In this document: positions 46,946 through 51,530 of the stretch, in pieces
How positions within the stretch are numbered: position 1 is the stretch's first letter
How the letters are laid out: each line of letters opens with the position of its first letter
Assembly (NCBI GenBank): GCA_015232395.1
Contig: JADFZT010000025.1
Location: forward strand, 1 to 55,780
DNA: 55,780 nucleotides
Direction: 5' to 3'
DNA from: Magnetococcales bacterium
GTDB lineage: Bacteria; Pseudomonadota; Magnetococcia; Magnetococcales; JADFZT01
Notes under the pieces: model-generated
What the model saw: the letters and a program-made list of their open reading frames with translations, nothing else
Told to the model about the DNA's origin: nothing
The model's database searches: none
Program-made: the position numbers and the translations under genes

Positions 46946-47308
46946 TTATGGATGATTGTCCAGTGTGGAAAGCAATTGTTGTGATGCTTGGTTTCCAGGA
47001 GATGAGGGCGAGACATAACACACTTTGGCGTCAGAGATGACCTGATCCCGGAAACGGGCGCTCAAAAAGCCGGGGGTGTTGAGATCGACCTTGCGGCCTA
47101 GAAGGTTGGAGAGTTCCATTTCCATGGTGAAAAAGGCGAGGCCTGGGGTATGGCCGGGTTGGAACTCCACCAAAACGTCGATATCGCTATCAGGGCCGAA
47201 TTCATCCCCCAGGATGGAGCCGAAGAGGGAGAGGCGTTGGATATGGTGGCGTTGGCAAAAATGGCTAATCTGCTCTTCGATGAGATTGATGCCGTGGAAA
47301 ATCGCCAT
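46946..47308 (-). CDS. MNT-type nucleotidyltransferase
   Basis: A 120-residue minimal nucleotidyltransferase. The motif LSLFGSILGDEFGPDSDIDVLVEF has the GS and the DxD metal residues of the DNA-polymerase-beta-like fold (MntA type). Such proteins usually pair with a HEPN-domain protein (HepT) in a toxin-antitoxin-like unit, where MntA AMPylates HepT. No HEPN reading frame is next to it here, so it is solitary. GGAGG lies eight bases upstream of the ATG. The C-terminus after LNTPGFLSARFRDQVISDAK is Ser/Gln-rich. Confidence 0.88.
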   Translation of the reverse strand: MAIFHGINLIEEQISHFCQRHHIQRLSLFGSILGDEFGPDSDIDVLVEFQPGHTPGLAFFTMEMELSNLLGRKVDLNTPGFLSARFRDQVISDAKVCYVSPSSPGNQASQQLLSTLDNHP

Positions 47309-47336: not shown

Positions 47337-47972
47337 TTACCCTTCAAACACCTCTCGAAAAGCCGCCAGATAGCGCTCTTCCAGCTCTTCCCGGGTGATA
47401 TCGACCCCGAGCTTTGCCAGGGATGTCACCGGGCGGCCTTGGAGCCCGCAAGGAATGATGCCATCGAAGTGGCTTAAATCCGGGTCCCGGTTGAGAGCTA
47501 CCCCATGATAGGCCACTCCCCTGGTGATGCGCACCCCCAATGCCGCGATTTTGGCTCGGTCCACCCACACACCGGGGTTGTCGGGTTCTCTGGTTGCTGT
47601 GATTCCGAGGCTGGAGAGGGTTTTCAGGATCGACTCTTCCAGCCGGGTGACGTGCTTTCGCACCATACGGCTGTGGGGCCGCAAATCCCACACCACATAG
47701 GCGATCATCTGCCCGGGCCCATGGTAGGTCACACGCCCCCCCCGATCGGTTTCAACCAGGGGGATTTTTTCCCGGGTGGAATCATCCAACACCTCCTCCA
47801 CCTTCCCCGATCTCCCCAGGGTATAGACGGGCGAGTGTTCCAACAGATAGAGGGTATGCCCCGCCCTCCCGGCAACCACCTCCCCCACCCGCTTCTGCTG
47901 CATCTCCCAAGCGGCTTCATAGTCGATCCGGTGGTGGCGGATAATCTCGAAGGATAGTGCTGCTTGGGTCAC
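47337..47972 (-). CDS. lipB: Octanoyltransferase LipB
   Basis: A 211-residue enzyme moving octanoate from ACP to lipoyl domains. Conserved blocks: TLYLLEHSPVYTLGR, DRGGRVTYHGPGQMIAYVVW, and AKIAALGVRITRGVAYHGVALN; the catalytic Cys is in FDGIIPCGLQGRPVTSL. Length is normal. The start is a GTG at 47972 that overlaps the stop codon of the TPR gene (GTGA), so translation is probably coupled. LipA, its pathway partner, is encoded in the same run, but the ATPase/TPR pair lies between them. Confidence 0.96.
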   Translation of the reverse strand: MTQAALSFEIIRHHRIDYEAAWEMQQKRVGEVVAGRAGHTLYLLEHSPVYTLGRSGKVEEVLDDSTREKIPLVETDRGGRVTYHGPGQMIAYVVWDLRPHSRMVRKHVTRLEESILKTLSSLGITATREPDNPGVWVDRAKIAALGVRITRGVAYHGVALNRDPDLSHFDGIIPCGLQGRPVTSLAKLGVDITREELEERYLAAFREVFEG

Positions 47973-49222
47973 CCTTCCTCCAGTTCGGCCAGTCGCTTGC
48001 GAGCCTCCTCAGCCCATTTCCGATGCTCCGCTTGTTGCGGATAGCTTTCAGCCAATTTTTCCCACAGTTGCAGGGATTCCTGGAAATATTCTCTGGCAGC
48101 CGCTGTTTTCCCCAATGATTTGGCAGAATCAGCACACTTCCAGTTGGATGTTGCCACTCCCCACAAGGCTTGCGGAGTATCGCCTAAATTGGTGTGTAGT
48201 CGGCCAAAAACTTCCAGCGACCTGCCAAACATCTCTTCAGCACCCTCTAGTTGCCCCAAAGCCTGGCGGATATCGCCCACCTTTTCCAGTGAAACAGCCA
48301 GATCCCGCAAAGCCTGTGGAGATTCACCCACGCTTTGAAGCAGGCGGCGGCTAATTTCCAAGGACTCCCCAAAGGCTTTCTCCGCCCCTTCCAGTTCTCC
48401 CAATTGTTCCTGGATTGCCCCCGCCTTGTTGAGGGAGATACTCAGATCACGCAAGGCTTCCGGGGTTTCGGTTTTCGCAGCAGCTCTGGCCAGCTCCAGA
48501 ACCCTTTCGGCAATCTCCTTCCCCCTTTCCCCTTGACCCATTTCGAGAGTGACATCCACCGCATGAAAACCCGCCTGAATCACCCCGGGACCGCTGCGAT
48601 CCTTCACCCGCTGCCACTCCCGGAGCATCGCTTCAGCCAGTTCCGGATGGAAAATGGTAGGTTCCTTCCCAGGATCACGACTCCCCACATCAAAAAATTG
48701 GGCTGGGGGCGTGGTGGAGAGGAGGCTGGAATCGAGGATAAAATTGTGGGTGCGGACCGACCAAAAGTCCGGGGCTATTTCGCGGATGTGGGGGCGGTAA
48801 TCACCGGGAAGAACCAGGATAAATGGACGGGAGAGACGGCTGCGCAGGAGATCCCGCTGGAGGTTTAAGCGGTGGAGAAGGGCCACACGGGCTTTTTCCC
48901 AGCTATCCCGGTCGGTTTCATCCCCCCTTTCCCAAAACTCCACCCAGAGAGGAGCGCGCATCTCCCGCAACCCCGGTTTTTCTTCCCGAATCAGGGCGAG
49001 GAGGTGATCAGGCAGATCCAGGGGCTCTTCGGTGCGCACCGGTTGCAGCCGGTTTACCTGAAACTGAAGCTGCAACTCCAGCCGCTCACGAAAAAGATTG
49101 ATCAAGCCGGGAAAAGAAGAAAAAATAACGAAAAGACCAAACCCTCCAGAGAATTGCATATGGGTGGAAAAACGGGTCCAGATCTCCTCCCCCTCCTCGG
49201 TCAGGTGTAGGGTCTCAGCCAC
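47969..49222 (-). CDS. TPR protein with degenerate N-terminal domain, partner of the adjacent ATPase
   Basis: A 417-residue protein. Residues 1-200 form an uncharacterised domain: after a charged start (TLHLTEEGEEIWTRFSTHM), a hydrophobic strand (FGLFVIFSSFPGLINLFRER) sits where a P-loop strand would be, but has no Walker A, and FILVLPGDYRPHIREIAPDF is a later strand. Residues ~250-405 contain three 48-residue tetratricopeptide-like repeats (units beginning ALRDLSISLNKAGAIQEQLG, ALRDLAVSLEKVGDIRQALG and ALWGVATSNWKCADSAKSLG). The start is a GTG at 49222, inside the end of the ATPase gene (8-base overlap), directly after its G-rich tail, which acts as ribosome binding site. Its stop codon overlaps the lipB start. 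Function unknown. Confidence 0.75.
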   Translation of the reverse strand: MAETLHLTEEGEEIWTRFSTHMQFSGGFGLFVIFSSFPGLINLFRERLELQLQFQVNRLQPVRTEEPLDLPDHLLALIREEKPGLREMRAPLWVEFWERGDETDRDSWEKARVALLHRLNLQRDLLRSRLSRPFILVLPGDYRPHIREIAPDFWSVRTHNFILDSSLLSTTPPAQFFDVGSRDPGKEPTIFHPELAEAMLREWQRVKDRSGPGVIQAGFHAVDVTLEMGQGERGKEIAERVLELARAAAKTETPEALRDLSISLNKAGAIQEQLGELEGAEKAFGESLEISRRLLQSVGESPQALRDLAVSLEKVGDIRQALGQLEGAEEMFGRSLEVFGRLHTNLGDTPQALWGVATSNWKCADSAKSLGKTAAAREYFQESLQLWEKLAESYPQQAEHRKWAEEARKRLAELEEG

Positions 49223-50564
49223 CCCCCTCCCCCTCGGCTGCCTTTTTGCGCTCCCTCTCCTGTTCGATCTCAATCATCTCCAGGATTTCATTTTTCAGCA
49301 GTGGATGCACATCATACCAGCTGTCCCCATTGCGATAGTTGAGAACGAGCTTGGTGTCGAAAAAACGAGCCAGATCAAACAGACTTTCAAGCTCGTTCAA
49401 CTCCGCCTTTTTGGTTTCAATGATGCCCCATAGCCACCAGGCATCTTGCTTGGCAATGGGGAGCATGCCCGCCTTCAGATCCACTTCAGCGGATTTGATG
49501 ATGGAATCCCCAACCGGGAGTTCCACTTTTTTGCGGCTGGCAACGGTGATCAAGACGTGTTGGATCAAGCGGAAAAAATCCCGCAAATCCCCACCCGATG
49601 AGACCGCTAATCGTCCCAACCCTTCCGGAGTAAATATTTTTTGCCAGCCGGAAAGTCGTTTGTCGACGATTTTCCGCATGATCTCCACCCCACCCTCATC
49701 CACTCCCCCATTCCGCAAGGAAACATGGACGCTGGGTAATCTATTCAGGGTCGCCCCTGCCAACAGTCCAGCGAGATTGGGAACCAGCGAGGGAAGATAA
49801 GGGGGAATGGTGTAGAGGATGCTCAGTTTGGGAATCATCAGGGATTTGGAGTGACCGGAAAAAAGGTCGGCCACCGAATGATAGATCTTGAGTGCGTTCT
49901 CCCTGCTGCCCGATCCCATTTTTTCCAGGGAATCCACCAGCACCACCACTTTTTTGTCCGGGTCGTTGCGCTCAAAACGCACCCGGTCCACCATCTTGGC
50001 CGCAAAAGCCCAAGCTTGGTTTTTTACCAGTTCGGAATAGGGTCCCAATTTTTCCCTGAGTTTGTCTTTAAAATCGTGATTTTCCTTCAAAGCCAGCCGA
50101 AGATTGTCGCCACCAACCTTCAAAGAGGCGTGATCGAGTTTAATCTCCTGGCTTAAAAATTGGGTCGTGCGTTCCCAATAGCTGGTTTCGGTTTCATCCA
50201 CCTTGAAACGTTTGTTGACCTCATCATTGAAAGCCCCCATCAGGGTGATCATAAAATCCCCCTCTTCGACGGGCTGGGTGGTGTTCAGATAATCTTCCAG
50301 ATCGCACAAAAAAACCTCACACCCCTGCTCCTCCAACAACCCCTTGAGTCGTCGCAGTTCCGTGCTTTTGCCGCTTCCCCGTTGACCAAAAAGAAGATCG
50401 ACGCTGGCAGATGCCTGCATGCTGATGTTGGCCACCAGCCTTTGGATCGGGTCGTCATCAAACCGTTTGTGGATGGGGACGTATACGGGATCCTTCGGCT
50501 CCAGAGGCCGGTCATCAAGTGCACGGAAAAATTTTTTCAGCTCCAGTTTATCTTCCGGGGTCAT
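49215..50564 (-). CDS. P-loop ATPase of unknown function, partner of the TPR gene
   Basis: A 449-residue ATPase. Walker A is DLLFGQRGSGKSTELRRLK (Gly60 to Thr68). Walker B is KKVVVLVDSLEKMG, with Asp near 211. A later LAVSSGGDLRDFFRLIQHV resembles the sensor 2 region of Orc/Cdc6- and STAND-like ATPases. The C-terminal segment (SLFDLARFFDTKLVLNYRNG then WYDVHPLLKNEI) is like a winged-helix end often found in ATPases of bacterial conflict systems. No nuclease, protease or TIR motif is seen. The tail is Lys/Glu/Gly-rich. It is 75 bases downstream of lipA, and the TPR gene starts before it ends. No family name is assigned. Confidence 0.78.
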   Translation of the reverse strand: MTPEDKLELKKFFRALDDRPLEPKDPVYVPIHKRFDDDPIQRLVANISMQASASVDLLFGQRGSGKSTELRRLKGLLEEQGCEVFLCDLEDYLNTTQPVEEGDFMITLMGAFNDEVNKRFKVDETETSYWERTTQFLSQEIKLDHASLKVGGDNLRLALKENHDFKDKLREKLGPYSELVKNQAWAFAAKMVDRVRFERNDPDKKVVVLVDSLEKMGSGSRENALKIYHSVADLFSGHSKSLMIPKLSILYTIPPYLPSLVPNLAGLLAGATLNRLPSVHVSLRNGGVDEGGVEIMRKIVDKRLSGWQKIFTPEGLGRLAVSSGGDLRDFFRLIQHVLITVASRKKVELPVGDSIIKSAEVDLKAGMLPIAKQDAWWLWGIIETKKAELNELESLFDLARFFDTKLVLNYRNGDSWYDVHPLLKNEILEMIEIEQERERKKAAEGEGGG

Positions 50565-50639: not shown

Positions 50640-51530
50640 CTACAATATAGTGCCATTTTCTGATTTTTCCACCCTCACACCCCTCTCTTCCACTTTGAGG
50701 GAAGAGCGGGCCAGTGGGTGGCTTTCCACCTGGGTGAAATGCATCTTCCGAGCCAGCTCTCCCAGCTCTTCAAACTCTTCCGGCTTCCAGTAGCGAATCA
50801 CCGGATGGTGGCTGGAACTGGGAGCCAAGTATTGACCGATGGTGAGGGATTGTACACGAGCCTCTCGCAAATCCCTCAACACCCCTTCCACCTCCTCCCG
50901 ACTCTCCCCCAACCCCAGCATGATGCCGGATTTGGTGATAACCTGATCGGAAAGCTCCGCCGCCTGCTTCAACACCCCCAATGAATATTCATAATCCGCT
51001 GCCGGACGCACATGGGCATAGAGCCGGGGAACGGTTTCGACGTTGTGGTTGAAAATCGTCGGTGCTGCCGCAACCACCCGCTCAAGCGCTCCCGCCTTAC
51101 CTCTAAAGTCAGGGGTCAGCACCTCCACGCTGGGGGCGGGTTCAAGGGTGGCCAGTTTTTCCAGACACGCGACAAATTGACCCGCCCCCCCATCAGCCAG
51201 ATCATCCCGATCCACCGAAGTGATCACCACATGTTTCAGCTTCAGGATTCGAACCGCCCGCAAAAGCCGCTCAGGTTCATCCGGATCAACGGGTAGGGGC
51301 TTGCCGGTGGTGACATCACAAAAGGCGCAATTACGGGTGCAGACTGAACCCAAAATCATGAAAGCCGCATGCCCCCCCTGCCAGCACGCACCAATATTGG
51401 GGCAGGTCGCTTCGCTACAGACCGTATTGAGCTGATGTTTTTTCAGCAGCCCCCGCATGGTGAGATATTCTTTGGAGGCGGGAAGGGGAACCTTGAGCCA
51501 GCGGGGTTTTCTGCCGGTGACCCCAACCAC
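50640..51530 (-). CDS. lipA: Lipoyl synthase LipA
   Basis: A 296-residue radical SAM enzyme that inserts two sulfur atoms into octanoyl-lipoyl domains. The auxiliary-cluster cysteines are in [16 protein letters not shown] and the SAM cluster motif is [37 protein letters not shown] and [20 protein letters not shown] are family blocks. The C-terminal RSSY motif reads RSSL here; the Ser ligand is kept while the Tyr is replaced. The start is a GTG at 51530, directly after the DHH gene stop codon. lipB lies two genes downstream. Confidence 0.96.

What the first reader, a model, noticed from the sequence alone, without database searches (positions are those of the whole stretch)
47969..50564. ATPase and TPR-protein pair embedded between lipA and lipB
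Seen: a P-loop ATPase gene and a TPR gene overlap each other by eight bases. The TPR stop codon overlaps the lipB start and the ATPase begins 75 bases after lipA. Established: LipA and LipB act consecutively in lipoate synthesis and are often neighbours. Inference: an ATPase with a sensor-2-like motif and winged-helix-like end, paired with a TPR protein whose N-terminal domain looks like a P-loop fold without Walker A, is the layout of NTP-dependent conflict or signalling modules. It may have inserted into the lip operon or may link lipoylation to a signalling ATPase.
Basis: partly seen in the sequence, partly recalled or inferred. Interest (0 to 1): 0.65.

Follow-up and report, generated by a model that had tools for sequence, protein, structure and literature searches.

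The report
STAND-like ATPase/TPR pair inside lip operon
Two genes sitting between the lipoate-synthesis genes lipA and lipB are a transferred copy of a widespread but unnamed two-part molecular switch (an ATPase plus a partner protein with exchangeable repeats or toxin-type domains) that resembles bacterial and animal immune switches and probably has nothing to do with lipoate.

Summary
An intact AAA+/STAND-type ATPase (49215-50564, minus strand) overlaps an N-domain+TPR gene (47969-49222) by 8 bp. The pair lies 75 bp after lipA, and its stop overlaps the lipB start. Neither protein matches a curated family above cut-off, apart from TPRs. The pair is a recurrent two-gene module: 72 of 84 related ATPase genes carry the same N-domain partner directly downstream, in seven phyla, and the two trees match (r=0.87). 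The partner's front domain has no Walker A and keeps N120, R123 and D152. Its tail is exchangeable: TPRs, SIR2-NACHT-FGE, NACHT-FGE or nSTAND1-WD40; one ATPase paralogue is fused to TIR. In relatives from the same order the operon DHH-lipA-lipB is intact without the pair. The window's ATPase groups with Methylococcaceae, not with other copies of its order, so it was acquired horizontally. Comamonadaceae copies sit between hom and thrC, so lip is only one landing place; a lipoylation link is not supported. Best reading: an NLR-like conflict or signalling module analogous to, but not shown to be, the published nSTAND2 two-gene system. Immune function is inferred, not tested.

The parts
49215..50564 (-). 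STAND/ORC-Cdc6-like AAA+ ATPase gene (449 aa)
   Evidence: intact ORF; AF2 pLDDT 92, best PDB matches ORC/Cdc6, archaeal Walker-type ATPases, S29/DAP3, TnsC, Apaf-1, CED-4; at least 398 relatives
50361..50387 (-). Walker A, GQRGSGKST (residues 60-68)
   Evidence: G60, G63, G65, K66 invariant in 48 sequences
49923..49949 (-). Walker B, VVVLVDSLE (residues 206-214)
   Evidence: D211 invariant; strand 206-211 in model
49581..49595 (-). sensor-2-like GGDLR (residues 324-328)
   Evidence: G324, G325 invariant, R328 at least 90%
49308..49451 (-). winged-helix-like C-terminal domain (residues 372-419)
   Evidence: helix-helix-strand-strand in AF2 model; Y410, W416, P421 nearly invariant
47969..49222 (-). 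partner gene: N-domain + TPR protein (417 aa from the GTG)
   Evidence: ORF and start; AF2 pLDDT 90
48734..49198 (-). partner N-domain (residues 9-163): alpha/beta, no Walker A, invariant N120, R123, D152 (LNxxR ... APD[LF])
47975..48646 (-). TPR region (residues 193-416)
   Evidence: Pfam TPR_12 1.1e-11; helical pairs in model
50640..51530 (-). lipA (upstream host-operon gene)
   Evidence: NCBIfam TIGR00510 1.6e-105
47337..47972 (-). lipB (downstream host-operon gene)
   Evidence: NCBIfam TIGR00214 1.3e-48

Best explanation
The pair is one copy of an unnamed, widely but patchily distributed two-gene module. Gene 1 is a STAND/ORC-Cdc6-like AAA+ ATPase switch with intact motifs (AAA core, lid with sensor 2, winged helix). 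Gene 2 is its dedicated partner: a conserved alpha/beta docking domain without a Walker A joined to an exchangeable tail. Proposed mechanism: at rest the ATPase and the N-domain form a heteromer; the tail (here TPRs) senses an intruder-derived or stress ligand; ATP binding drives oligomerisation as in Apaf-1/NLR-type switches; the output is fused to the partner in some copies (SIR2-NACHT, nSTAND1-WD40) or to the ATPase (TIR), and is recruited through the TPRs here. It acts in biological conflict (anti-phage or abortive response) rather than in metabolism. In this genome it was acquired horizontally and landed between lipA and lipB, where overlapping stop and start codons probably couple its translation to the operon. 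Shown: pairing, conservation, co-inheritance, predicted ATPase fold, exchangeable tails, empty sites, transfer. Inferred: complex formation, oligomerisation, ligand sensing, immune output, translational coupling.
For: Pairing: of 84 ATPase genes in the window and 80 loci, 72 have the N-domain starting 6-942 bp downstream of the ATPase stop, most within 150 bp. Several of the 12 exceptions are contig ends or masked or reversed genes, and L047's next gene is a partner by eye. The same holds in loci L020-L023 and L025 of the same order and on plasmids. Co-inheritance: Mantel r=0.87 over 42 pairs (0.87 non-cyanobacterial, 0.69 in the window's clade; p 0.0002), the same nearest neighbours for both proteins. 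N120, R123, D152 invariant in 29 partners down to about 14% identity. ATPase fold matches ORC/Cdc6, 2qen, 2fna, S29/DAP3, TnsC, Apaf-1, CED-4, RdrA. Tails: TPR in 23 of 29; SIR2_2+NACHT+FGE with a second SIR2_2 gene next door in L039; NACHT+FGE in L047; nSTAND1+WD40 in cyanobacteria; ATPase-TIR fusion in Calothrix L006. STAND, TIR and FGE domains recur in published prokaryotic conflict systems (PMC7159879, PMC8195603, PMC10907252). Transfer: tree, empty sites, patchiness (11 of 61 near relatives incl. the window with any match; 9 of 398 phylum-wide, all of the own order).
Against: No functional data. The window's own pair carries no recognisable effector, only TPRs. Its neighbourhood is housekeeping, not a defence island. 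No match above cut-off in PADLOC or in NCBIfam anti-phage families, and none in phages. Complex formation was not modelled. NTP-dependent switches of this type can also be transcription or developmental regulators.
Confidence: 0.6

Rival explanations
1. A non-immune regulatory or assembly ATPase: the pair is a STAND/ORC-like chaperone or signalling device that controls assembly or transcription, with TPRs as client-binding platform.
For: Best structural matches include ORC/Cdc6 and TnsC, which are not immune proteins; most window-type partners carry only TPRs; copies sit in housekeeping operons.
Against: Exchangeable tails with SIR2, NACHT, FGE and a TIR fusion; patchy distribution and horizontal transfer.
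Confidence: 0.25
2. A selfish or addiction-type passenger that persists by embedding itself, translationally coupled, in operons of important genes (lipA-lipB, hom-thrC, fmt-rsmB).
For: Three unrelated housekeeping operons carry it; overlaps with neighbouring starts.
Against: No toxin or antitoxin recognisable in the window pair; most other loci are not visibly inside such operons.
Confidence: 0.1
3. A dedicated link between lipoylation and a signalling ATPase.
For: Position and overlap with lipB.
Against: lipA-lipB is directly adjacent without the pair in 16 genomes of the order; another genome has an unrelated FAD oxidase in the same gap; none of the other fetched family loci has lipA or lipB nearby.
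Confidence: 0.03

Closest known systems
nSTAND2 two-gene counter-invader system (eLife 2021;10:e70394, PMC8195603)
   Same: mobile two-gene operon; one active STAND-type NTPase said to be close to DAP3; second protein lacks NTP-binding motifs and carries variable tails
   Different: published tails are mostly GT4 or HEPN, here TPR, SIR2-NACHT-FGE, nSTAND1-WD40; that the partner's N-domain is an eroded STAND module could not be shown; published alignments were not available for a sequence test
STAND NTPases (Apaf-1, CED-4, archaeal Walker-type ATPases) and ORC/Cdc6
   Same: AAA core, sensor-2-bearing lid and winged helix
   Different: sensor and output modules are on a separate protein instead of the same chain
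MoxR-vWA ternary systems with iSTAND or VMAP (eLife 2020;9:e52696, PMC7159879)
   Same: NTPase core plus constant partner plus variable effectors such as FGE and TIR
   Different: no MoxR or vWA component seen; two genes, not three
Sll1717-family P-loop ATPase (NF047389), mad8 and PDC-S20 (PADLOC), DS41_1 (NF053860)
   Same: weak profile matches of some family members
   Different: far below curated cut-offs where given; the window protein itself matches only at about 1e-4 to 1e-1

Membership tests
STAND/AAA+ ATPase | Walker A and Walker B of the ASCE type | tested here: met
   G60, G63, G65, K66, D211 invariant in 48 sequences
STAND/AAA+ ATPase | AAA core followed by helical lid and winged helix | tested here: met
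   AF2 model and Foldseek matches spanning these parts
STAND/AAA+ ATPase | nucleotide-dependent oligomerisation | not testable with these tools
   needs biochemistry
nSTAND2 two-gene system | conserved two-gene operon with one active NTPase | tested here: met
   72 of 84 ATPase genes; motifs intact
nSTAND2 two-gene system | second protein is an eroded STAND NTPase | tested here: inconclusive
   no Walker A, alpha/beta order compatible; hhalign probability 9-16%, 2 of 60 block shuffles reach the score
nSTAND2 two-gene system | arginine finger in both proteins | tested here: inconclusive
   R303 and R328 in the ATPase and R123 in the partner are conserved but their place in a ring is unknown
nSTAND2 two-gene system | tails most commonly GT4 or HEPN | tested here: not met
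   neither is among the 25 commonest families of 29 scanned partners
nSTAND2 two-gene system | sequence membership in the published alignment | not testable with these tools
   source data not held
Known anti-phage system (PADLOC) | convincing match to a PADLOC model | tested here: not met
KAP NTPase (name given to some relatives by annotators) | match to PF07693 above cut-off | tested here: not met
   window ATPase has no KAP match; some cyanobacterial relatives match weakly
Lipoylation pathway component | conserved association with lip genes | tested here: not met

The most novel reading that the evidence does not exclude
A distinct, so far unnamed class of split NLR-like system across at least seven phyla: a constant ATPase switch and a constant adaptor domain (LNxxR...APD[LF]) on a second protein, into which sensors or effectors (TPR, nSTAND1-WD40, SIR2-NACHT-FGE) are plugged. 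The split lets one switch serve interchangeable outputs, and the window holds a minimal TPR-only form.
Probability: 0.5. Interest if true: 0.68.

Novelty: new variant of a known kind. Interest (0 to 1): 0.5.

Why it matters
At least 398 relatives of this ATPase exist in one collection; those seen in annotated plasmid records are labelled hypothetical, 'KAP family', 'ATP-binding' or (partners) 'ribosome assembly protein 4', and no curated family describes the ATPase or the adaptor domain. If the conflict role holds, it adds a split NLR-like architecture to bacterial immunity and a simple rule for finding effectors: read what follows the N-domain. It also shows that such modules can sit inside core biosynthetic operons, where searches based on defence islands do not look.

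Tried and rejected
Lipoylation link: rejected. Homology of the N-domain to the ATPase core: tested by hhalign with reversed and block-shuffled controls, not significant. Phage or viral-contig relatives: none found in three viral-contig scans, GenBank phages or PHROGs. The first genome-contig scan with the window protein alone found nothing; alignment A3 worked. Solved-structure sequence searches gave only generic P-loop hits or TPR designs. Foldseek of the partner is dominated by TPR proteins and says nothing about the N-domain. Terminal repeats or target-site duplications of the insert: no convincing pair at the ends. RNA elements: none. Promoter/terminator scan: a promoter-like site at 50671-50644 upstream of the ATPase and no terminator-like site at either junction, but such matches are near chance. 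A planned PADLOC count of neighbouring genes was dropped because the simple ORF calls were too noisy.

Full report
OBSERVATION. Every coordinate of the finding holds. On the minus strand the order is DHH phosphoesterase (52646-51531), lipA (51530-50640), ATPase (50564-49215), N-domain/TPR gene (49222-47969), lipB (47972-47337), a small nucleotidyltransferase (47308-46946), NUDIX (46936-46493) and a DegP-like protease (46542-45124). The 8-bp and 4-bp overlaps are real. The ATPase has somewhat lower G+C (0.516) than lipA (0.569) and lipB (0.602); the TPR gene (0.561) does not.

WHAT THE PROTEINS ARE. No curated model is reached by either protein in Pfam, NCBIfam, PADLOC or PHROGs, apart from TPRs. 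Plasmid tblastn found a 33% relative in Acidisarcina and 23-26% relatives in cyanobacteria. In 48 aligned ATPases G60, G63, G65, K66, D211, F235, L242, R303, G324 and G325 are invariant. The AF2 model (pLDDT 92, pTM 0.90) shows an AAA core, a lid and a winged-helix-like end. Foldseek's best solved matches are archaeal ORC/Cdc6, eukaryotic ORC subunits, the Walker-type ATPase 2qen, a mitochondrial 28S ribosomal chain that I take to be S29/DAP3 (6gaz_Ag), TnsC, Apaf-1, CED-4 and RdrA (E 1e-7 to 1e-4, TM about 0.3-0.45). This is STAND/ORC-type AAA+ architecture.

The partner (AF2 pLDDT 90) has an N-domain with alternating strands and helices (strands at 29-35, 60-62, 92-95, 133-139, 158-163), then TPR helices from 193 on. 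No Walker A follows strand 1 in any aligned partner. N120, R123 and D152 are invariant in 29 partners, including distant copies from the same order. Whether this domain is a decayed P-loop domain remains open: hhalign against the ATPase aligned elements in the expected order but with a probability of only 9-16%, and 2 of 60 block-shuffled controls reached the same score.

THE PAIR IS THE UNIT. In 80 loci plus the window, 72 of 84 ATPase genes have the N-domain starting shortly downstream; of the rest, several are cut by contig ends or masked bases, and L047's next gene is a partner with NACHT and FGE. The same pairing occurs in distant copies of the same order and on plasmids. Distance matrices of the two proteins correlate at r=0.87 over 42 pairs (0.87 without cyanobacteria, 0.69 in the window's own clade of 21, permutation p 0.0002 each), and four of the window's five nearest neighbours are the same for both proteins. 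Co-inheritance alone can give this, so it supports the pair as a unit but does not prove contact.

EXCHANGEABLE TAILS. Of 29 mostly non-cyanobacterial partners, 23 carry TPRs. L039 (Acidobacteria) carries SIR2_2+NACHT+FGE, with a second SIR2_2 gene just downstream. L047 (Enhygromyxa) carries NACHT+FGE. Cyanobacterial partners run on into nSTAND1-type P-loops and WD40 repeats. A second Calothrix ATPase copy is fused to TIR (L006). L077 and L079 have an extra AAA_16/nSTAND1+TPR unit fused before the ATPase. STAND, TIR and FGE domains recur in published prokaryotic conflict systems, and SIR2-like domains are known bacterial immune effectors (established knowledge). This is the main argument for an immune-type role.

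HOW IT CAME TO LIE BETWEEN lipA AND lipB. In 16 of these genomes lipA and lipB lie on one contig with about 30-110 bp between the matched parts, and the wider order OsmC/DHH-lipA-lipB-NUDIX-DegP is shared without the pair. One genome (L109) has an unrelated FAD-dependent amine-oxidase-like gene in the same gap. In the ATPase tree the window groups with Methylococcaceae (97/86), while other copies of the same order form a separate clade (100/100). So the pair arrived by horizontal transfer into an existing operon. Elsewhere the pair lies between homoserine dehydrogenase and threonine synthase in two Comamonadaceae (L044, L048) and directly after fmt-rsmB in a Methylococcaceae genome (L050). No lip gene occurs in any other fetched locus. 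The lip position is therefore incidental. The window's own flanks are housekeeping genes, so there is no defence-island evidence here.

DISTRIBUTION. The A1 profile finds matches in 11 of 61 near relatives, the window included, two of them marginal; in a phylum-wide sample of 398 genomes only 9, all of this order, reach 1e-20. Relatives come from Pseudomonadota, Myxococcota, Acidobacteriota, Actinomycetota, Cyanobacteriota, Armatimonadota and Fermentibacterota. Phages: none found.

COMPARISON WITH THE KNOWN. The nearest published description is the nSTAND2 two-gene system (PMC8195603): a mobile operon of an active STAND NTPase and an inactive one fused to variable effectors. The layout is the same in kind. 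The tails differ, and the eroded-STAND nature of the partner is not shown here, so I do not file it as nSTAND2. I found no paper in the held library that describes this ATPase/N-domain pair; most subscription papers and preprints are outside that library.

VERDICT. Real, intact, horizontally acquired; one copy of a recurrent unnamed two-gene STAND-type module with exchangeable tails. A conflict role is likely but untested; lipoylation is not involved as far as can be seen. Limit: no second genome of the window's own genus or family was held, so the age of the insertion and its constancy there are unknown.

Noticed in passing
window 46946-47308 (-): A small stand-alone Polbeta/NTP_transf_2 nucleotidyltransferase (MNT type) lies between lipB and NUDIX; relatives L109, L116, L117 and L118 have NUDIX directly after lipB, so this too looks inserted. 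No HEPN partner seen next to it.
   Followed up: partly
L109 3438-4946 (genome G007): A FAD-dependent amine-oxidase-like gene occupies the lipA-lipB gap in another genome of the order, overlapping the lipB start.
   Followed up: partly
L044 and L048 (Rhodoferax, Acidovorax MAGs): The same module sits between hom and thrC, with the partner's stop close to the thrC start: a second case of embedding in a biosynthetic operon.
   Followed up: yes
L006 7195-9288 (Calothrix plasmid): A second ATPase copy fused to a TIR domain, next to a normal copy and a partner with two N-domains in tandem.
   Followed up: partly
L039 5733-10733: N-domain fused to SIR2-NACHT-FGE, followed by a second SIR2-like gene.
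   Followed up: yes
L090 580-11126 (Trichodesmium MAG): Two ATPase/partner pairs in a row plus a third N-domain gene.
   Followed up: no
L077 3480-6332, L079 3279-6164, L059: Cyanobacterial ATPases with an extra AAA_16/nSTAND1 plus TPR unit fused in front.
   Followed up: partly
L040 4878-6237: The ATPase of a Methylovulum MAG is split over two frames: frameshift or assembly error.
   Followed up: no
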